Source: an uncultured Chlorobiaceae bacterium (lineage in GTDB: Bacteria; Bacteroidota; Chlorobiia; Chlorobiales; Chlorobiaceae). Taken from it: a stretch of DNA of 38,502 nucleotides. Shown piece after piece: positions 1 through 31,623 of this stretch. Location: contig CAILRB010000021.1 in the NCBI GenBank assembly GCA_903836465.1, forward strand, positions 1 to 38,502, given 5' to 3'. A program made the translations under genes and the position numbers. Under the pieces are notes generated by a model. That model saw nothing but the letters and a program-made list of their open reading frames with translations. It did not search any database and was not told the DNA's origin. Every line of letters begins with the position of its first letter. Position 1 is the stretch's first letter.

Positions 1-1
1 C

Positions 2-508
2 AGCGTTGATGGTGTCACTGCACCTCTCTTCTATGTGCTGTTCTTCGGTCCGGTCGGCGCCATTGCCTACAAGGCGATCAATACGCTCGACTCCACCTTT
101 GGCTATAAAAATGAACGCTATCTTGAGTTTGGCTGGGCTGCGGCCAAGCTTGACGATCTTGCCAACTATCTGCCAGCAAGAGTAACGGTTCTCGTCATTG
201 CACTGGCGGCGGCTATCAGTAAACTCCAGATTTATGATATCTTTCAAGCCGTTCGTCAGGGTGCCAGGATTCACGCAAGTCCCAATGCCGGATATCCAGA
301 ATGCGCTTATGCCGGTGCGCTCGGCGTCACCTTTGGCGGTGGCAGGAGTTACGGTGGGGAGTTCCATAATTCCCCATTGCTTGGTGTCAGAGCGGGGAAG
401 TGTTCGTCGCTCACGATCCGTCAGAGTGTGAGGCTGATGCGGATGACGGCGGTGTTGTTTCTTGCTCTTGGGGTGGGGATCAGAGTGGTGTTGCAGTTGG
501 TGGTGTAA
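2..508 (+). CDS. cbiB: Adenosylcobinamide-phosphate synthase CbiB/CobD, 3' part
   Basis: This is the C-terminal half of the integral membrane enzyme that attaches aminopropanol (phosphate) to adenosylcobyric acid to give adenosylcobinamide (phosphate). The frame is open from base 2, so the gene begins before the window. The visible part contains the family hallmarks [34 protein letters not shown] and, further on, [17 protein letters not shown] followed by SYGG. A hydrophobic stretch follows the LPAR motif and another ends the protein, as expected for a polytopic membrane protein. The ending looks complete. The next B12 gene, cobO, starts only at 4756, because about 4.2 kb of accessory DNA lies between them. 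The identification is firm; only the length is unknown. Confidence 0.93.
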
Positions 509-568
509 ATGCTGCGCTTCGCGCATCGAAGTGTAATATAGTGTCCGGCGGCTTGGGAAAGTGTAAAT

Positions 569-606
569 CGGTCGCCGAGTAGCGCGAAGCGCGTATCGAG
601 GCGCAG
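569..606 (+). repeat. Palindromic repeat, copy A (forward)
   Basis: The consensus is roughly GGTCGcyGAGTAG, then a short hairpin stem with a GAA loop, then gTATCGA(a/g)gCG. In this copy the stem is CGC-GAA-GCG. It lies 60 bp before the GIY-YIG gene. A further degenerate trace of a similar sequence is visible at 511-533. Confidence 0.8.
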
Positions 607-665
607 CGGTAACTTGACGGACAATCAAGGAAATAGCTTACAATAACCTCTGATTTCAGATACTC

Positions 666-956
666 ATGGGTTTTATGTATATCTTAAAATGCGCTGATGG
701 AAGCTATTATACCGGCAGTACTGTCAATTTGGAAATCCGTTTCCATCAACATCAGCATGGCGAGGGTGCAAATTATACGAAAAAGAGACTGCCGGTAGAG
801 TTGATCTATTTTGAAGAGTATTCGCGAATAGATGAAGCTTTTTACAGAGAAAAGCAGGTGCAGCATTGGAGCAGGAAAAAGAAAGAAGCATTGATTGAAG
901 GTAAATATTCTGATTTGCCAGAGCTTGCGAAAAAGATATGGAAGAAGGACGCATGA
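666..956 (+). CDS. Small GIY-YIG endonuclease-like protein (UPF0213 type)
   Basis: The protein is a 96-residue single-domain GIY-YIG nuclease. The two signature strands appear as MYILKC (GIY position, residues 4-9) and YYTGST (YIG position, 14-19), followed by LEIRFHQH with the conserved Arg and a C-terminal FYREKQVQHW segment carrying the conserved helix. UPF0213 proteins are usually 80-100 residues, so it is full length. ATG 675 (MYILKC) is an alternative start to ATG 666, and neither has a clear Shine-Dalgarno sequence. Palindromic repeats of one family lie on both sides (569-606, 959-1122), which suggests that this nuclease gene and the repeats belong together. The molecular role is unknown; family members are predicted to nick or cut DNA. 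Confidence 0.9.
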   Translation: MGFMYILKCADGSYYTGSTVNLEIRFHQHQHGEGANYTKKRLPVELIYFEEYSRIDEAFYREKQVQHWSRKKKEALIEGKYSDLPELAKKIWKKDA

Positions 957-958
957 AC

Positions 959-972
959 CGGTCGCCGAGTAG
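959..972 (+). repeat. Palindromic repeat, 5' half only
   Basis: Only the leading half (CGGTCGCCGAGTAG) of the repeat family is present, starting a few bases after the stop codon of the GIY-YIG gene and just before a full copy at 980. Confidence 0.7.
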
Positions 973-979
973 CTATCTC

Positions 980-1017
980 CGGTCGCCGAGTAGGCCGAAG
1001 GCCGTATCGAGGCGCAG
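980..1017 (+). repeat. Palindromic repeat, copy B (forward)
   Basis: This is a full forward copy with stem GGCC-GAA-GGCC. The stem sequence differs from copy A, but the change is matched on both arms so pairing is kept. It faces the inverted copy at 1027-1065, ten bases away, forming a head-to-head pair. Confidence 0.85.
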
Positions 1018-1026
1018 GTTGGTGAT

Positions 1027-1065
1027 GGTCACTTCGATACGCGCTTTGCGCTACTCAGTGACCGG
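1027..1065 (-). repeat. Palindromic repeat, copy C (inverted)
   Basis: This is a full copy on the minus strand. Read on that strand the stem is GCGC-AAA-GCGC. With copy B it makes an inverted pair resembling the REPIN arrangement of REP sequences. Confidence 0.85.
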
Positions 1066-1085
1066 TGGCTTGGTTAGGTGTAGAT

Positions 1086-1122
1086 CGGTCGTTGAGTAGG
1101 GCGAAGCCCGTATCGAAACGAC
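1086..1122 (+). repeat. Palindromic repeat, copy D (forward)
   Basis: This is a full forward copy with stem GGGC-GAA-GCCC and outer arms GTCGTTGAG and TATCGAAACGAC. The outer arms also pair (GTCGTT with AACGAC), giving a two-part hairpin. Confidence 0.85.
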
Positions 1123-1193
1123 TTGTATCTACCAAAGATATAAACAGAAATGCTTCATGGGACACCAGTTGTCCTCACTTAACATATTTTAGA

Positions 1194-2024
1194 ATGAGCA
1201 CTATCAAACTGTTTGAAGAAAAAAAAGTGCGAAGCCATTGGGATGCCGAAACAGAGGTTTGGTACTTTTCCGTAATTGATGTTGTTGAAATATTAACAGA
1301 CAGCCCCAGACCAAGAAAATATTGGAATGCGCTGAAAACTAAACTAAAAGCAGAAGGAAATGAAACGTCCCAAAAATTGGGACAGTTGAAAATGCAGGCA
1401 GAAGACGGAAAAATGCGGGAAACAGATGTTGCTGATACAGCAACATTATTGCGGATTATTCAGTCCATCCCTTCGCCCAAAGCAGAACCCTTTAAACAAT
1501 GGCTGGCGAAGGTAGGTTATGAGCGGATGCAGGAGATGAATGATCCATCATTGGGTATGGATAGAGCTCGTGCAAACTGGCAAAAAATGGGGCGTAGCGA
1601 AAAATGGATTCAGCAGCGAATGACCGGGCAGGAAACCAGAAATAAACTCACTGATTATTGGAAAGATGCAGGTATAAAAGAAAAAGATGAGTTCGCTATG
1701 CTTACCAACATCATTCATAAGGAATGGACTGAGTTAACGGTAAAGGAGCATAAACAGTTAAAAGGGTTGGAATGGCAGAATCTTCGTGACCACATGAGTG
1801 AAGCGGAATTGATTTTTACGGCATTAGCAGAACTTTCGACCCGTCAAATTGCAGATAGTGAAAAAGCACAGGGCTTAACCGAGAATACAAAGGCAAGTAA
1901 AAAAGGTGGATCTGTAGCCAGGAATGCACGCAAAGAATTGGAAGCAAAAACCGGAAAATCGGTTATAACAGGTGAGAATTTTCTGCCTCCTTCTGAAGAG
2001 GAGAAATTGCTTCAGAGAAAGTAG
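1194..2024 (+). CDS. Bro-N domain protein (prophage antirepressor-like)
   Basis: The protein has 276 residues counted from ATG 1194 (MSTIKLFEEKKVR). The longer open frame from 1065 begins inside a palindromic repeat and has no protein-like character, so it was not used. The N-terminal third (EEKKVRSHWD, WYFSVIDVVEIL, then PRKYWNALKTKLK) is a typical Bro-N DNA-binding domain. The sequence LLRIIQSIPSPKAEPFKQWL closes that domain. The remainder is the helical tail seen in the widespread chromosomal Bro-N family, ending in a Lys/Glu-rich part with KKGGSVARNARKELE. Phage relatives act as antirepressors; the role of these stand-alone chromosomal forms is unknown. It sits between copies of the palindromic repeat in the segment inserted between cbiB and cobO. 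Confidence 0.88.
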   Translation: MSTIKLFEEKKVRSHWDAETEVWYFSVIDVVEILTDSPRPRKYWNALKTKLKAEGNETSQKLGQLKMQAEDGKMRETDVADTATLLRIIQSIPSPKAEPFKQWLAKVGYERMQEMNDPSLGMDRARANWQKMGRSEKWIQQRMTGQETRNKLTDYWKDAGIKEKDEFAMLTNIIHKEWTELTVKEHKQLKGLEWQNLRDHMSEAELIFTALAELSTRQIADSEKAQGLTENTKASKKGGSVARNARKELEAKTGKSVITGENFLPPSEEEKLLQRK

Positions 2025-2081
2025 TGAATATGTTCATTTTACAATCCGGAGACTGAGTCCGAAGAGCGGGTTTGGCGAGAT

Positions 2082-2120
2082 GGTCACCTCGATACGCGCT
2101 TTGCGCTACTCGGTGACTGG
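2082..2120 (-). repeat. Palindromic repeat, copy E (inverted)
   Basis: This is a full minus-strand copy closely matching copy C (stem GCGC-AAA-GCGC) and lying 57 bp after the Bro-N gene. The repeats therefore bracket both the GIY-YIG gene and the Bro-N gene. The 2025-2185 interval holds nothing else recognisable. Confidence 0.85.
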
Positions 2121-2185
2121 CGGCGGTGGTGTATTGAAAGTATATTTAGCAGTGGGATTGAGATCGTAATCAATAATTACTAAAA

Positions 2186-2551
2186 ATGGAAAAAATATTG
2201 ACTGAATTGTTGGTTGAGTTATTGGATTATCTGAGTAAAGATCAGAGAAATTCGGAGTTGGTTGAGATTGATTTTTCGGAAGAAATTAAGAAATTAATAA
2301 TTGATAAACTTGATAAAATCACCTCTTCAGATAAAATTAACGATCTTAAAAATCATGTCGTTGAGTGCTCATGGGGGACATATATTATTGGTGTTGAATG
2401 GAAAAGTAGTATAAAAGAATTGTGTTTAGTATGTGAGGAGGGGAGGTGGCCAATTGTTCATATAAAAAAGGGTGGTAACATTGTTATTAAGCCATTAGAA
2501 ATTCAAAAATATTTAAATAATACACAATATGGAAATATTTTTCTATACTGA
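2186..2551 (+). CDS. Hypothetical protein, 121 residues
   Basis: The family is not recognised. It is an acidic, Ile/Leu/Lys-rich soluble protein of 121 residues, with a helical-looking N-terminal half (residues 1-55) and a likely beta-rich second half containing VECSWGTYIIGVEW and GRWPIVHIKKGG. It has no signal peptide or membrane segment. Base composition is strongly AT-rich, like the next two genes and unlike the neighbouring B12 genes, which points to acquired DNA. There is no clear ribosome-binding site before ATG 2186. The long open frame and sensible composition support a real gene. Confidence 0.6.
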   Translation: MEKILTELLVELLDYLSKDQRNSELVEIDFSEEIKKLIIDKLDKITSSDKINDLKNHVVECSWGTYIIGVEWKSSIKELCLVCEEGRWPIVHIKKGGNIVIKPLEIQKYLNNTQYGNIFLY

Positions 2552-2640
2552 TATTTGAGAATTTTTTTTTCATTAAAATTGCTTTCCTTTTGTTTGCTTT
2601 GTAAAAAAAACTTATAAATGTATTAATAATATTTTTTGAT

Positions 2641-3978
2641 ATGTTTAAATCAATATTTTCATTTAAAGGAAGAATAAGAAGACTTGAGTATGGTATAAGC
2701 ACTATTATCTATTCATTCTCAACTGCGATTCTAAAGTTAACAATTTCTTCAATAGCAGCAAATAATCACACGAATTCATTTTCCGAATATCGACTTCTTT
2801 TTTTATTATTAATTTTACCATTATTGTTTTTTTGGTGTACACAAGGCGCTAAAAGATGTCATGATATTAACAAAAATGGATGGTGGCAATTAATACCATT
2901 TTTTCCATTTTTCTTAATCTTTAAAGAAGGTGACTTCGGTGATAACAAGTATGGTAAAACCCCAAAAGATCAGGATAAAGATAATCTGAAAAATAAAAAA
3001 GTCGCCTCTATTGCTGGCACAAATATTAAGAAAAAAAATAATGAGTTAAATATATATTCACTACAAAACGATTTCGACACCAAAAAGAAAACTTTAGTAA
3101 AACTTAAAGAAGAAAAAATTATATCAGATAACTTATATGAAATTAAATTACTTGATTTAGAAAATCAATTCAAAAAAGATAAGGAAGATTTGCTTCTTAA
3201 GCATAAAAATAAAAAAACAGATCAAGCAATTTCTGAGAGATTTAATTCTGAGAGAAAAACGTTAGATCAATCTTTAGACTTAAAGTTACTTACTAAAGAA
3301 GAGCATCAAGTAATGGTTGACGATCTTTATAATAAGATCAAGAAAGACGTACAATATGTTTTTGAAAAGCAGGTTAATAATCCAAATACTTCAGTCGATG
3401 AAAGTAGTAACTCCGCTGTTAGCGATGCTTCTTCTGTTGTTTTTCTTGCGTCTTTAGTGGTGGTATTAATTATGATTGTAATATTTGTAGCAGTATCAAG
3501 CAAAGCACCTACAGCTCCTGAAGCTCCAGTAGAAGCACCCATCGAAGCTCCCGCAAAATATCCACCCCCATCTATTACGACTGAAATTCTAAAAAATGAA
3601 AGGGTCTTTAAAATTGGTGAAAATTATGGCGGCGGTATAATTTTTTCTCTTGATAGTACAGGTAAACATGGTTTGATTGCTTCAGCAGAAGACCAAAGTT
3701 CTTGGAGTGAATGGGTGAATGCGTTATTAATATGCAGGAAATATCGCGGGGGTGGTTTTAGTGATTGGTATCTACCGAGTAAAGATGAACTTGATAATCT
3801 TTATAAATATTGCAATGCTGTAGCTGATACTTTTGAAAGCGACGACAAGACTACCTTTTACTGGACATCAACAGAGAATAGTGCGACACATGCGTGGGCT
3901 CAGAATTTTAGTAATGGTAATCAGATTTCTGGTGCGAAAGACGCTTTGGCTCGTGTTCGTCCTGTGCGGGCTTTTTAA
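2641..3978 (+). CDS. DUF805 membrane protein fused to a DUF1566 (Lcl C-type-lectin-like) domain
   Basis: The protein has 445 residues and four visible parts. Residues 1-115 are a DUF805 membrane domain (FSFKGRIRRLEY start, hydrophobic helices, QGAKRCHDINKNGWW, then GDFGDNKYG). Residues about 135-240 are Lys/Glu-rich coiled coil. A single membrane helix lies near 263-285, followed by a Pro/Ala-rich linker. Residues 320-445 are a DUF1566/Lcl domain (GGGIIFSLD, WYLPSKDELDNLY, FYWTSTENSATHAW, ending RVRPVRAF). The C-terminal domain is probably exported or surface exposed. The gene is very AT-rich. Domains of this fold are frequent targets of diversity-generating retroelements, and the last 40 residues have the look of such a variable region, but no reverse transcriptase or template repeat is visible here. 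The function is unknown. Confidence 0.85.
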   Translation: MFKSIFSFKGRIRRLEYGISTIIYSFSTAILKLTISSIAANNHTNSFSEYRLLFLLLILPLLFFWCTQGAKRCHDINKNGWWQLIPFFPFFLIFKEGDFGDNKYGKTPKDQDKDNLKNKKVASIAGTNIKKKNNELNIYSLQNDFDTKKKTLVKLKEEKIISDNLYEIKLLDLENQFKKDKEDLLLKHKNKKTDQAISERFNSERKTLDQSLDLKLLTKEEHQVMVDDLYNKIKKDVQYVFEKQVNNPNTSVDESSNSAVSDASSVVFLASLVVVLIMIVIFVAVSSKAPTAPEAPVEAPIEAPAKYPPPSITTEILKNERVFKIGENYGGGIIFSLDSTGKHGLIASAEDQSSWSEWVNALLICRKYRGGGFSDWYLPSKDELDNLYKYCNAVADTFESDDKTTFYWTSTENSATHAWAQNFSNGNQISGAKDALARVRPVRAF

Positions 3979-4044
3979 TCTCTAAGGGTTTAATTTTCAA
4001 CCGTTTGCGGTGAATTATGTTAAACTTTCTCCCAAAAACAGATA

Positions 4045-4065
4045 CCCCGCTGCTTGCGGAGGGGG
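4045..4065 (+). other. Short GC-rich inverted repeat after the DUF1566 gene
   Basis: CCCCGC and GCGGAGG can pair around a TGCTT loop with one bulged A, 66 bp after the DUF1566 stop codon. No T-run follows, so it is a poor intrinsic terminator. It could be a terminator remnant or the hairpin often found downstream of retroelement variable regions. Confidence 0.35.
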
Positions 4066-4134
4066 GCGTTCATTTAAGAAAAATCTCCTCGTGATAGTAC
4101 AGTTTTTATACCCATTATTGCTAAGTGTTTTGTT

Positions 4135-4749
4135 ATGAATTTTAAGGAAACAATAAATATAATTAAAATAATTTTTGAGTTTCTTGTGCCATTAATATCT
4201 ATTTTCACCTTAATTAAAGGTATTTGTGAATACTCAAAAGCACAGAAATGGAAAAAATCTGAGTTTCTTGCCAAAGAAATAAAAGAGTTTAATAATGATT
4301 CTGATGTACAAAATGCATTTTTAATGCTCGATTGGAATAATATAGATATAACAACTTTAAATATAAATGTAGAGGAAACTAAGAAGATATATTTTAATGA
4401 TCGTCTGTTTGAAAATTCGTTAAAACATCATAAGGAAAAAACATTTACTCCAGAGGAAGCAGTTATTAGATTAATTATGGATGCGTTTTTGTTTAAGCTT
4501 GGAATGTTTCAGAATTATCTCGAGAGTAAACTTATTACTGCGAATGATCTGAAACCTTATATTATTTATTGGATAGAAATTATCGGTGATACTAATAACG
4601 ATAGAAAAAGTAAGAGCGTCAGGCTTCAGCTTTGGAGATATATTAATTATTATCGATATGATTCTGTTATCAAACTTTGCAAAAATTATGGGTTTAATAT
4701 TGGAACTGAGAAGAAACCGATCTTAACAACATACAAAACTGAAGCTTAA
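4135..4749 (+). CDS. Hypothetical membrane-anchored protein
   Basis: The protein has 204 residues. An N-terminal hydrophobic helix (about residues 8-32) is followed by YSKAQKWKKSEFLAKEIKEF and later MLDWNN. This layout is shared by a widespread family of accessory proteins of unknown function, recalled from general experience rather than from a named domain. The rest is helical and soluble, probably cytoplasmic. It is AT-rich like its two upstream neighbours and ends six bases before the cobO start, so it marks the right edge of the inserted segment. No function is proposed. Confidence 0.65.
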   Translation: MNFKETINIIKIIFEFLVPLISIFTLIKGICEYSKAQKWKKSEFLAKEIKEFNNDSDVQNAFLMLDWNNIDITTLNINVEETKKIYFNDRLFENSLKHHKEKTFTPEEAVIRLIMDAFLFKLGMFQNYLESKLITANDLKPYIIYWIEIIGDTNNDRKSKSVRLQLWRYINYYRYDSVIKLCKNYGFNIGTEKKPILTTYKTEA

Positions 4750-4755
4750 CCCCTC

Positions 4756-5283
4756 ATGACCCCAAGACGTATCCTCCTCTTCACCGGAAACGGTAAAGGC
4801 AAAAGCACAGCGGCCTTTGGAATGCTGGCAAGAGCACTGGGCCACGGCATGAAAGCCAGAGTGATCCAGTTTGTAAAATCTGATGATGCTGTTGGCGAAC
4901 AGCGCTTTTTCAGTCAACTTGATGGAGTTGAGTGGGAGCAGTTCGGCAAGGGATTTCTGCCTCGCGATCGCCAGAGCCCAAAAATGGAGGAGCATAGAGC
5001 TGCTGCACGAGCAGGGCTTGATGCGGCGATTGCTGCTCTTGCTTCTCCTGATTACGACGTTGTACTGCTTGATGAACTCTGTTTTGCGGTTGGCCATAAC
5101 CTTATCGCAATCGAGCCGTTGCTTGAGGCGCTACGGTCGTCAGAAGATGGCAAGATTGTGGTGATGACGGGTCGCAATGCACCAGAAGCGCTGGTGGCTG
5201 TTGCTGATACGGTGACGGAGATGACGATGATTAAACATGGGTATCAGCAGGGGATTCCTGCGCAGAAGGGTGTTGAGGATTGA
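4756..5283 (+). CDS. cobO: Cob(I)yrinic acid a,c-diamide adenosyltransferase
   Basis: This enzyme transfers the adenosyl group of ATP to cob(I)alamin or corrinoid precursors, giving the adenosylated forms used later in B12 synthesis and salvage. The 175-residue length fits the CobA/CobO/BtuR family. The P-loop GNGKGKST lies at residues 11-18, followed by AAFGMLARALGHG, VIQFVK and VVLLDELCFAVG, all typical of the family. The usual hydrophobic/Arg-rich end with MTGRNAP is present. Its last base is shared with the ATG of the btuC-like gene, so the two are translationally coupled. No clear Shine-Dalgarno sequence precedes ATG 4756; the bases just upstream belong to the AT-rich insertion, so the native promoter of this gene may have been displaced. 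Confidence 0.95.
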   Translation: MTPRRILLFTGNGKGKSTAAFGMLARALGHGMKARVIQFVKSDDAVGEQRFFSQLDGVEWEQFGKGFLPRDRQSPKMEEHRAAARAGLDAAIAALASPDYDVVLLDELCFAVGHNLIAIEPLLEALRSSEDGKIVVMTGRNAPEALVAVADTVTEMTMIKHGYQQGIPAQKGVED

Positions 5284-6329
5284 TGATTATGAAGCGTATC
5301 AAGCGTTCAGCGGTTTGTGCCGATAACAGTTTTACCACGCAAAGCCGCAGCAGGGGAGCGTGGAGGATGTTGCTCTTTTTTGCGGCGCTCATGGCGTTGC
5401 TTGCTCTTTCCATGCTTCTTGGACCTTCGGGAATCGGTATTCCTGATATGGAATCACCTTCGGGCAGTGCTATTCTCTCGCTTCGGTTCAGTCGTCTCCT
5501 GATGGGGATGATGACCGGCGCGGCACTTTCGGCGTCCGGAGTAGTCTTTCAGGCGCTGCTGCGCAACCCTTTAGCCGAACCTTATGTGCTCGGAGTGAGT
5601 GGCGGGGCTGGTCTTGGCGCAACCCTGACAATACTTGCCGGGACGGGAGTGCTTGCCTCGTTCAGCCTGCCGATTGTGGCCTTTCTTTCGGCGGTGGTGA
5701 CGTTGATGGTGGTGTACGGCATCGCCAGCCAGGGGTCAAGTGGTCAGCCATCCGTCTATAGTCTTATTCTCAGCGGTGTTATTGTAAGCTCAATCTGCTC
5801 AAGCATTATCATGTTTCTGGTATCCACCGCTAGCGTTGAGGGGATGCACAATGTGATATGGTGGATGCTTGGCAGTCTTCAGCCAGTCTCGGCAGGCCAG
5901 CAGCTCCTCTCAGCGGCGCTGCTTTTCGGGGCGCTTGCGGGAATATGGCTGCTCTCTCCACGTCTCAATGCCCTTGCGCTTGGGCGTGAGATGGCCCATT
6001 ATCAAGGTCTTCATGCCGATCTGGTTATTGTTATCGGTCTGCTGTTTGCGACGCTTCTGGCTGCCATCGCGGTCTCCCTTTCCGGGATGATTGGCTTTGT
6101 CGGGCTCATTGTGCCTCACGTCATGCGTGCTATCTTCGGGCCTGACCACCGAAAGCTTGTCCCTCTTGCCGCGCTTGGCGGGGGCGTTTTTCTTGTTGTC
6201 TGTGATGCCGTGGCCCGAACCCTGCTTGCTCCCGTTGAGATCCCGGTCGGTGTGGTGACTGCCCTTGCCGGCGGGCCATTTTTTCTCATTATTCTTCAGC
6301 GGAGAATGAAACAGGCATGGATAGCATGA
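5283..6329 (+). CDS. btuC: BtuC/FecCD-type ABC transporter permease, probably for cobalamin
   Basis: This is a polytopic inner-membrane permease of about 348 residues, the usual size for the FecCD family. Family marks include LRFSRLLMGMMTGAALSASG, VFQALLRNPLAEPYVLGVS and GMIGFVGLIVPHVMR, the last being the ATPase-coupling loop, followed by GPDHRKL and an ending with VGVVTALAGGPFF. ATG 5283 overlaps the cobO stop by one base; ATG 5289 is an alternative, with a GAGG just upstream. Iron-siderophore and vitamin B12 permeases belong to the same family, and B12 is chosen only from the neighbours. The 3' end overlaps the ATPase gene. No substrate-binding protein gene is present in the window. Confidence 0.9.
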   Translation: MIMKRIKRSAVCADNSFTTQSRSRGAWRMLLFFAALMALLALSMLLGPSGIGIPDMESPSGSAILSLRFSRLLMGMMTGAALSASGVVFQALLRNPLAEPYVLGVSGGAGLGATLTILAGTGVLASFSLPIVAFLSAVVTLMVVYGIASQGSSGQPSVYSLILSGVIVSSICSSIIMFLVSTASVEGMHNVIWWMLGSLQPVSAGQQLLSAALLFGALAGIWLLSPRLNALALGREMAHYQGLHADLVIVIGLLFATLLAAIAVSLSGMIGFVGLIVPHVMRAIFGPDHRKLVPLAALGGGVFLVVCDAVARTLLAPVEIPVGVVTALAGGPFFLIILQRRMKQAWIA

Positions 6330-7594
6330 TGCAGCACTATGCAATGACCTTCAGGAACGTCTCTGCCGGGTACAAGCAGCGAAAGGTGCTCGACAACGTC
6401 AGCTTTACCGTCAAAGAGGGGGAGTTCGTTTCTCTTATTGGCCCGAATGGCTGCGGAAAAAGCACCCTGCTGAAGACTGCTGCCGCTCTTCTCAAGCCAC
6501 TCTCAGGCAAGGTTGAACTTTTTGGTCAGGATGTGCAGCATATCAAACCGGCTCTGCGCGCATCCCTGCTGGGCGTGGTGCCGCAGAAAATCGAGTCGCC
6601 GATGGCTTTTACCGTCGATCAGATTGTGATGAACGGTCGAATCAGCTCCATGGGGCGCTGGGGAACTCCCTCTTCGGTTGACCACGATCTTGTCGAACGC
6701 TCCATGATCTACACCGATGTGCTCGATTTGCGGGAGCGATTTTTTACGGAGTTGAGCGGTGGTGAACAGCAGCGGGTTGCCCTGGCGATGGTGCTCGCGC
6801 AGGACCCGAAAATCATCATGCTTGATGAATCGATCTCCCATCTTGATATCAACCACCGTCAGGAGGTGCTTCAGATTCTGATGAACCTCAACCGCGAAAA
6901 ACAGATGACCATTTTGCTGGTGAGCCACGATCTCACCCTCTCGGCAGGTATCTCCGACCGATTTTTGCTGATGGAGTCTGGCACCCTGGTAAAGGCCGGA
7001 ACGCCGGTTGAGGTGCTGGAGCCCGAGGTGTTGAGCCGCGTCTACAACTGCGACCTCCATGTGCAGCAGGATCCCTATACCGGCTATTTGCAGGTGACGG
7101 GGGCGATTGACAGCCTGAGACGTCGCCAGAAGCTGAACCGGAGTGTGCATGTCATCGCCGGAGGGGGAAGCGGCATTGAACTCTATCGCAGACTGCTGAT
7201 TGAGGGGTACGAAGTGACCACCGGCGTTCTCAACCGTCTCGACTCCGATGCTGAAGCCGCAAGGGCGCTCAATATTCCGGCGGTGCTGGAACAGCCTTTT
7301 TCGCCGGTTGGTTCGGACACCATAGCACAGGCGTTGAAGATGGTGGGTGATTCTGACATCGTTATTCTCAGCCAGGTGCCGTTTGGCTCAGGCAACCTAG
7401 TCAATCTGACCTTGGCCGAAGCGGCGCTCAACAGTGTCAAACCGGTTTTTCTGGCCGATGGTATTGCCACTCGTGACTACACCGAGGGCAAAGCTGCCCT
7501 TGCATTTAGCACCCGCCTGATGCAGAGTGGCGCCAAGGTGTGGCACTCAATGTCCGAACTGATGACTCACCTTCAACAACAACCAGACCGATAA
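6317..7594 (+). CDS. btuD: BtuD/FecE-type ABC ATPase with an extra C-terminal Rossmann-like domain
   Basis: The protein has 425 residues. Residues 8-240 form a standard ABC ATPase: Walker A GPNGCGKST near 42-50, signature LSGGEQQR, Walker B KIIMLDES and switch VSHD. The gene overlaps the permease gene by 13 bp, so together they form the importer core. Plain BtuD proteins stop near residue 260. Here a further 160 residues follow, opening with SVHVIAGGGSGIELYRRLL, which looks like a glycine-rich nucleotide-binding turn, and continuing with alternating strand/helix pattern. The extension may bind a nucleotide or corrinoid, but this is a guess. B12 as substrate is inferred from cobO upstream and the cbiR candidate downstream. 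Confidence 0.9.
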   Translation: MDSMMQHYAMTFRNVSAGYKQRKVLDNVSFTVKEGEFVSLIGPNGCGKSTLLKTAAALLKPLSGKVELFGQDVQHIKPALRASLLGVVPQKIESPMAFTVDQIVMNGRISSMGRWGTPSSVDHDLVERSMIYTDVLDLRERFFTELSGGEQQRVALAMVLAQDPKIIMLDESISHLDINHRQEVLQILMNLNREKQMTILLVSHDLTLSAGISDRFLLMESGTLVKAGTPVEVLEPEVLSRVYNCDLHVQQDPYTGYLQVTGAIDSLRRRQKLNRSVHVIAGGGSGIELYRRLLIEGYEVTTGVLNRLDSDAEAARALNIPAVLEQPFSPVGSDTIAQALKMVGDSDIVILSQVPFGSGNLVNLTLAEAALNSVKPVFLADGIATRDYTEGKAALAFSTRLMQSGAKVWHSMSELMTHLQQQPDR

Positions 7595-25022: not shown

Positions 25023-25507
25023 GACGTTTTACAAGACGCTGATGATCGGCATAAAGCAGCGTATACAGAAAGCGCAAACAAAAGCGATTCTTTCCGCTAA
25101 TTCCGAACTGATTTCCATGTTTTGGGATATCGGAAAGATGTTTGTGCAGAAACAAAAGCTCGAAGGTTGGGTGCTGCACTTATTCCAAGGCTTTCAAAGG
25201 ATATCCACAACGAATTACCTGAAATCAAGGAGTTTTCGGAATGGAACGTCAGGTATATGAACTGTCTCGCGAAAGAATATGGGAAATCAGTTTTGCCACA
25301 GGCTGTTGCAAAATTAACGGTGCAGGCCTTGCTTGCTGATATTCCCTGTGGGGGCATCCCGAAAAATATCTGGTTGAACTTTGGGCCGGATTTGCCTTTG
25401 TCGGCTCCAAACCGGAATATGCCGGAAAGTTGATTTATTCCTGCTCCGTTGACGCTAATGAGCTGACACAAATATTCCGCAACCACTGCGTGATTTTTCT
25501 CTTGTAA
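25023..25507 (+). pseudogene. DUF1016 (YhcG-type PD-(D/E)xK nuclease) relic, copy 1
   Basis: Pieces of a DUF1016 protein appear in more than one frame. LTFYKTLMIGIKQRIQKAQ opens it, then AILSANSELISMFWDIGKMF; after a frame change comes LIPRLSKDIHNELPEIKEFS and WNVRYM. The C-terminal part reads GHPEKYLVELWAGFAFVG joined directly to SKPEYAGKLIYSCSVDANEL. In full DUF1016 proteins some 50-60 residues containing nuclease residues stand between those two pieces. From 25291 onward it matches copy 2 (31323 onward) closely, including this same internal junction. Confidence 0.8.
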
Positions 25508-25591
25508 CCTCCTGCACTCCTTTTATTTGATATGAATATTCGGTAAATAAAAGGACTCCGTAGAATGACCGAATATCACAAATAACGACCA

Positions 25592-31252: not shown

Positions 31253-31521
31253 ATGAGCGAACTGACTTTTTACAAGACGCTGCTGATCGCCGTTTATCGA
31301 AAGTATCCTGCCTTCTGGACAATTTTGCCACAGGCTGTGGCAAAAATACCGGAGCTGGCCTTGCTGTCAGGTATTCCCTGTGGGGGCATCCCGAAAAATA
31401 TCTGGTTGAGCTTGGTGCCGTTTTTGCCTTTGTCGGCTTCACATCGGGATATGCCGGAAAATTGAATTATTCCTGCTCCGCTGACGCTGATGCGCTGACA
31501 CAAATATTCCACAACCACTGA
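31253..31521 (+). pseudogene. DUF1016 (YhcG-type) relic, copy 2
   Basis: MSELTFYKTLLIA is the start of a DUF1016 protein. After a large deletion and a frame change come LWGHPEKYLVELGAVFAFVG and, across the same internal junction as copy 1, YAGKLNYSCSADADALTQIF. Compared with copy 1 almost all of the N-terminal domain is lost. No catalytic core remains. Confidence 0.8.
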
Positions 31522-31623
31522 GTGATTTTTCTCTTGTAACCTCCAGCATTCCTTTTATTTGATGTGAATATTCGGTAAATAAAAAGAGACCATGGAATGA
31601 TCGAATATCACAAAAAACAACCA

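What the first reader, a model, noticed from the sequence alone, without database searches (positions are those of the whole stretch)
569..2120. Palindromic repeats with compensatory stem changes around a GIY-YIG gene
Five full copies and one half copy share outer arms, but the inner stems are CGC-GAA-GCG, GGCC-GAA-GGCC, GGGC-GAA-GCCC and GCGC-AAA-GCGC. The changes are paired on both arms, which is direct evidence for selection on a hairpin. Copies are in both orientations, and they bracket a single-domain GIY-YIG nuclease gene. By analogy with REP elements and their RAYT transposases, the nuclease might act on or spread these hairpins. That link is inference.
Basis: partly seen in the sequence, partly recalled or inferred. 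Interest (0 to 1): 0.6.

Follow-up and report, generated by a model that had tools for sequence, protein, structure and literature searches.

The report
Nuclease gene ringed by its hairpins
A small DNA-cutting enzyme gene in a green sulfur bacterium (Chlorobium) is surrounded by short hairpin-forming DNA repeats that are very probably its own target sites, and the same gene-plus-hairpin pairing recurs in about a dozen bacterial phyla.

Summary
The window (Chlorobium-type MAG) has five full hairpin repeats and one half copy around a 96-aa single-domain GIY-YIG gene (666-956). Sixty-one copies from eight related genomes show strong paired changes in both stems.

The association is general. GAG...TCGA palindromes occur at 6.1/kb within 250 bp of homologous genes but 0.045/kb at 4-10 kb (80 loci, 14 listed lineages); seven control cores stay at or below 0.12/kb. 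Protein clade and the bases 5' of the hairpin match perfectly: the YTG-ST clade (the window's) has G-N-N, usually GGT (87 loci against 0), and the sister clade has GTC (31 against 0). In four genomes and on one further contig both types occur, each gene with its own type. RAYT transposases are absent from the window's genome.

Best reading: the protein is a sequence- and structure-specific single-strand nuclease and the repeats are its cognate sites. From memory, this is the kind of system described in 2025 as Ssn (GIY-YIG ssDNA nuclease with repeated target sites, Neisseria); I could not read that paper here. Whether the nuclease spreads the repeats is unproven: two repeat-rich relatives lack a detectable gene. 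REP/RAYT is a good functional analogy, not a family membership.

The parts
570..606 (+). hairpin repeat copy 1: GGTCGCC-GAGTA-GCGC-GAA-GCGC-GTATCGA-GGCGCAG
666..956 (+). single-domain GIY-YIG nuclease gene, 96 aa (PF01541, E 1.1e-16); probable cognate nuclease of the repeats
   Evidence: conserved Y5, Y15, G17, R25, H29, E62; model pLDDT 92.8 resembles UPF0213 and Slx1 structures
960..980 (+). half copy: GGTCGCCGAGTAG followed by unrelated bases
981..1017 (+). hairpin repeat copy 2, inner stem GGCC-GAA-GGCC
1027..1063 (-). hairpin repeat copy 3 (inverted), inner stem GCGC-AAA-GCGC
1087..1123 (+). hairpin repeat copy 4, inner stem GGGC-GAA-GCCC
2082..2118 (-). hairpin repeat copy 5 (inverted), inner stem GCGC-AAA-GCGC, beyond the BRO-N gene

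Best explanation
The gene at 666-956 encodes a small GIY-YIG nuclease, and the repeats around it are its cognate recognition sites. SHOWN: the repeats are hairpins under selection on one strand (both stems covary; a constant, not fully complementary GAG/TCGA pair sits between them; conserved bases lie on the 5' side only); they cluster around this gene family in many phyla; the conserved 5' bases match the protein clade. INFERRED: the protein recognises the folded single strand by the 5' motif plus the hairpin foot and cuts at or beside it. Such a strand would be exposed in replication, in DNA uptake or in recombination. Cutting there could limit or direct uptake and recombination of incoming single-stranded DNA and could also let the short hairpins be copied to new places. 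This is the Ssn type of system as I recall it (Neisseria, 2025), here as a branch with a GGT-type 5' motif and a GAG/TCGA core.
For: Density of GAG..TCGA palindromes: 6.14/kb within 250 bp, 1.28 at 250-500 bp, 0.045 at 4-10 kb; 70 of 80 loci have at least one within 1 kb, 63 at least two; seven control cores at or below 0.12/kb. The motif came from Chlorobium and from L075-L098 before it was tested on these loci. Several of the loci without a strict hit carry relaxed copies (for example TGAG..CCGAA in L168, L172 and L174). Clade against 5' motif: 87/0 and 0/31. G105, G236, G071 and G172 and the contig L123 hold both gene types, each with its own repeat type. Conservation on the 5' side only: G at -3 in 310 of 322 copies (window's clade), GTC in 94-95 of 99 (sister clade), with the 3' side much looser. 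More distant single-domain GIY-YIG genes mostly lack these palindromes. Covariation; DNA folding z = -3.4 and -3.2 for the two Chlorobium-type copies. Catalytic-type residues kept in 25 homologues. Fold resembles UPF0213 and the structure-selective Slx1.
Against: No biochemistry was possible. G019, G060 and G262 carry such repeats without a detectable GIY-YIG of this family, and G169 (40 short-type copies) has only a distant one. The 5'-motif match is essentially one switch on the tree, so it is weak as a count of independent events. The Ssn paper could not be read and no Neisseria sequence was compared, so the family name rests on memory.
Confidence: 0.72

Rival explanations
1. REP/RAYT-like mobility: the nuclease is the mobiliser. 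It excises or copies the hairpins (mostly as inverted pairs) and moves its own gene between flanking copies, as Y1 transposases do for REP elements.
For: Dispersed Chlorobium copies sit mainly as (-,+) inverted pairs, mostly about 30-40 bp apart (16 of 24 adjacent pairs). The commonest bracket is +gene- (37 of 79). In the genus of G105 the left-flank gene is conserved without the nuclease locus in 8 genomes, while the nuclease gene occurs without that flank in about 6 others. Homologues of 65-78% identity lie in other phyla. G053 has a minimal repeat-gene-repeat unit.
Against: No target-site duplication or clean insertion footprint was found; the one presence/absence site examined (G000 C15) fits deletion as well as insertion. 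A GIY-YIG domain alone hydrolyses DNA and is not known to join it (general knowledge). Two repeat-rich genomes lack the gene.
Confidence: 0.3
2. The repeats are general intergenic hairpins (terminators, mRNA stabilisers) and the nuclease gene merely settles at such hot spots.
For: Repeats without the gene in G019, G060, G262 and G169.
Against: Clade-specific 5' motifs, two types in single genomes, and steep decay with distance.
Confidence: 0.07
3. The repeats are REP elements moved by a RAYT (Y1) transposase; the GIY-YIG gene is a passenger.
For: Y1 transposases occur in 47 of 61 family genomes.
Against: None in G000, G053 or G057, which carry both repeats and the GIY-YIG gene.
Confidence: 0.02
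4. The repeats act as RNA structures that regulate or terminate the nuclease gene's own transcript.
For: Copies lie close upstream and downstream of the gene (medians 62 and 43 bp).
Against: Both orientations, many copies per locus, dispersed copies elsewhere, and no Rfam family.
Confidence: 0.03

Closest known systems
Ssn family of GIY-YIG site-specific single-strand nucleases and their repeated target sites (Neisseria NTS; recalled from memory, Nature Communications 2025, paper not held here)
   Same: Small single-domain GIY-YIG protein; short hairpin-type repeats in many copies; different homologues have different cognate sequences. The sister clade here has a 5' GTC(A) motif, and two more distant GIY-YIG genes (L180, L202) have GTCAT hairpins beside them, which resemble the Neisseria repeat as I remember it.
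   Different: The window's clade has GGT instead of GTCA, a constant GAG/TCGA mismatch between outer and inner stem, and (in Chlorobium) a second covarying inner stem. Identity to the Neisseria protein and cleavage were not tested.
REP elements and RAYT (TnpA-REP) Y1 transposases
   Same: Short imperfect hairpins with conserved 5' bases, intergenic, often as inverted pairs, clustered around a nuclease-type gene and dispersed elsewhere.
   Different: The protein is GIY-YIG, not an HUH/Y1 transposase; the 5' motif is not GTAG; RAYT is absent from this genome.
UPF0213 / COG2827-type single-domain GIY-YIG proteins (BH0048, EF2693)
   Same: Same fold and domain (1zg2 E 3e-20, 1ywl E 2e-16).
   Different: Those entries are 'hypothetical', with no repeat association that I know of; the Bacillus subtilis yazA locus has no such palindromes.
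GIY-YIG homing endonucleases of group I introns (I-TevI type)
   Same: Same catalytic domain; weak NCBIfam hits in 2 of 12 homologues.
   Different: No intron here (no Rfam match), no extra DNA-binding domain.

Membership tests
Ssn nuclease/target-repeat system | Small single-domain GIY-YIG protein with kept catalytic residues | tested here: met
Ssn nuclease/target-repeat system | Cognate repeats in several copies, around the gene and dispersed | tested here: met
   16 matches in the genome, 10 beside the two genes, the rest dispersed
Ssn nuclease/target-repeat system | Repeat sequence differs between homologues in step with the protein | tested here: met
   87/0 and 0/31, and both types within single genomes; essentially one switch on the tree
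Ssn nuclease/target-repeat system | GTCA(T)-type 5' motif (Neisseria type, recalled; not known to be obligatory) | tested here: not met
   Window clade has GGT; GTC is met in the sister clade (94-95 of 99) and GTCAT beside two more distant genes. Whether this motif is obligatory in Ssn could not be checked.
Ssn nuclease/target-repeat system | Sequence relationship to the characterised Neisseria protein | not tested
   No Neisseria sequence at hand; paper not held
Ssn nuclease/target-repeat system | Site-specific cleavage of single-stranded DNA | not testable with these tools
   needs purified protein
REP/RAYT | RAYT (Y1/HUH transposase) gene | tested here: not met
   PF01797 absent from G000
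REP/RAYT | GTAG-type tetranucleotide 5' of an imperfect hairpin | tested here: not met
   The position is occupied by GGT
REP/RAYT | Inverted pairs of hairpins dispersed between genes | tested here: met
   16 of 24 adjacent dispersed pairs are (-,+)
Group I intron homing endonuclease | Lies in a self-splicing intron | tested here: not met
   No Rfam match in 400-2300

The most novel reading that the evidence does not exclude
A GIY-YIG nuclease by itself drives the spread of short hairpin repeats and of its own gene between flanking copies: a REP-like mobile system without any HUH transposase, present in many phyla and accounting for widespread bacterial repeats of the TGAGCCTGTCGAAG and TGAGCGAAGTCGAAG type.
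Probability: 0.25. Interest if true: 0.85.

Novelty: new member of a known kind. Interest (0 to 1): 0.6.

Why it matters
Short palindromes with a TGAG...TCGAA core occur in many bacterial genomes, and I know of no named mobiliser or reader for them. Here they are tied to one nuclease family, with a readable protein-to-DNA specificity code (YTG-ST proteins with GGT hairpins, their sister clade with GTC hairpins). That makes the function directly testable with oligonucleotides, and supplies many natural nuclease/target pairs of the kind useful as single-strand-specific cutters.

Tried and rejected
RAYT as mobiliser: rejected for this genome. Assembly gap as the reason why G019 lacks the gene: in G019 cobD is followed directly by BRO-N with no GIY-YIG between them, so the gene is missing from that site rather than lost in a gap there. 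Insertion footprint at G000 C15: inconclusive, fits deletion too. Defence-system library: no match. Rfam: no match. Text searches for GIY-YIG with REP, REPIN, RAYT or palindromic repeats, for COG2827 and UPF0213, and for the repeat strings themselves found no paper on this association; the Ssn paper is not in the library. Genome-wide short-type pattern counts across 296 Bacteroidota genomes follow the gene only loosely: several of the highest counts (G061, G066, G070, G071, G074, G105) have a gene of this family, but G169 and G262 do not.

Full report
1. What is there. The window is contig C21 of a 2.77-Mb genome (107 contigs) that falls in the same genus as named Chlorobium/Chlorobiaceae MAGs. 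Between the end of cobD (35-508) and a BRO-N gene (1194-2024) lies a 96-aa single-domain GIY-YIG gene, 666-956. Five full hairpin repeats and a half copy surround it at the stated places. Consensus: GGTCRYY-GAGTA-N4-RAA-N4'-GTATCGA-RRYGACC.

2. Chance and selection. The core occurs 16 times in the genome and the reversed control 0 times. Ten copies lie beside one of the two GIY-YIG genes, the window's and a 95% identical one on contig C7. C7 and C21 share the cobD - GIY-YIG - cobO - btuC order at 88-92% identity, so these are homologous loci, not independent events. In 61 distinct copies from eight genomes, 108 cells are changed on both sides of a pair against 43.6 +/- 5.4 in shuffles; sliding the partner destroys the signal; the inner stem is 98.8% paired. 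Columns 1-2 (GG) are nearly invariant, while their 3' partners fail to pair in about half the copies. So the 5' bases are conserved for themselves and not only as part of the stem. The GAG and TCGA stretches that face each other are constant and not fully complementary. Together this points to recognition of one folded strand.

3. Across the family. Among 61 family genomes, eight are rich in the repeat (5-33 copies; the rest 0-3, the level of the control). Six of the eight carry the close GIY-YIG (over 90% identical) and none of the 53 others does. The exceptions are G019 and G060. The gene lies in the cobD-cobO region wherever it was examined; outgroup genomes have cobD and cobO next to each other. 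RAYT/Y1 transposases are absent from G000, G053 and G057.

4. Across the bacteria. A search of 296 Bacteroidota genomes gave homologues of 45-78% identity in unrelated families. Their flanks carry palindromes of the same plan: variable outer stem, YGAG, inner hairpin or a 4-5-base spacer, TCGAR, outer stem. This includes the common TGAGCCTGTCGAAG and TGAGCGAAGTCGAAG repeats. The motif was fixed there and then tested on 80 loci from a separate collection (three of these are Chlorobium). Density is 6.14 per kb within 250 bp and 0.045 per kb at 4-10 kb; 70 of 80 loci are positive within 1 kb; seven control cores give next to nothing. By lineage all are positive except Dojkabacteria and Cloacimonadota (one locus each) and 10 of 59 Bacteroidota. 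Several negatives carry relaxed copies. Many of these records are MAGs, so single-locus lineages may be mis-binned.

5. Specificity. On a tree of 164 genes the YTG-ST clade, to which the window belongs, has repeats with G at -3 (mostly GGT) in 87 loci and GTC-type in none; the sister clade (YTG followed by V, M, C, I, F or L) has GTC-type in 31 and G-type in none. In G105, G236, G071, G172 and on contig L123 both gene types occur and each is flanked mainly by its own type. A genome-wide background of hairpins cannot easily produce this. The limit: the switch happened essentially once on the tree. More distant single-domain GIY-YIG genes mostly lack the GAG/TCGA repeats; two of them (L180, L202) have GTCAT-hairpins instead. 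Sphingomonas (L300) has GAG/TCGA palindromes preceded by GTTCA or GTTCG.

6. The protein. Pfam GIY-YIG; nearest solved structures are UPF0213 proteins, then the structure-selective nuclease Slx1 (weak, E 0.05-0.3). Y5, Y15, G17, R25 and H29 are invariant and E62 nearly so in 25 diverse homologues, which suggests a working nuclease.

7. How it probably works. Shown: selected hairpins, strand asymmetry, physical clustering, clade matching. Inferred: binding and cutting of the folded strand by the neighbouring enzyme. A role in limiting or steering uptake and recombination of single-stranded DNA follows from the Ssn work as I recall it. A role in spreading the repeats is suggested by the inverted-pair units, by empty orthologous sites and different locations within the genus of G105 and by the patchy distribution, but no footprint was found.

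8. Relation to known systems. REP/RAYT is a good analogy but two defining features were tested and not met (RAYT gene, GTAG motif). The Ssn family is the closest known kind; it is cited from memory because the paper is not in the library. Its GTCA-type motif is not met by the window's clade but is met by the sister clade. I therefore file the finding as a probable new member of that kind, with moderate confidence, and keep 'works like Ssn' apart from 'is Ssn', which needs a sequence comparison and a cleavage test.

Noticed in passing
window 1-6345 and L020 1-2802 (G000 contig C7): The cobD - GIY-YIG - cobO - btuC region is present twice in the assembly at 88-92% identity; segmental duplication or a second strain in the MAG.
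   Followed up: partly
window 1194-2024: BRO-N domain gene between the repeats, also near the same place in G033, G048 and (71% identical) G019, where the GIY-YIG gene is missing.
   Followed up: partly
L046 3663-6043 (G019 contig C9): In the gene-less, repeat-rich genome G019, repeats bracket ORFs that look like toxin-antitoxin or abortive-infection genes (nucleotidyltransferase-like; judged by eye).
   Followed up: no
L180 and L202 (G174): More distant single-domain GIY-YIG genes with GTCAT-hairpin repeats (GTCATACCGGACTTGATCCGGTATC, GTCATCCTGAACTTGTTTCAGGATC) on both sides.
   Followed up: partly
G174 and G171: These genomes hold 16 and 11 GIY-YIG matches (UvrC included), unusually many single-domain copies.
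   Followed up: no
L078 1507-1959, L084, L089: The GIY-YIG reading frame runs on into the hairpin repeats, so repeat sequence appears to be added to the C-terminus.
   Followed up: no
L168, L172, L174: A subgroup has CCGA instead of TCGA in the 3' arm (TGAGCGTAGCCGAAG), as if the core itself can drift.
   Followed up: no
G169: 40 copies of the short-type repeat pattern but only a distant GIY-YIG gene without palindromes beside it.
   Followed up: partly
window 25288-25587 and 31320-31619: Two 300-base direct repeats, 88% identical, 6 kb apart.
   Followed up: no
window 2641-3978: Protein with a DUF805 N-terminal part and an Lcl_C C-terminal domain.
   Followed up: no
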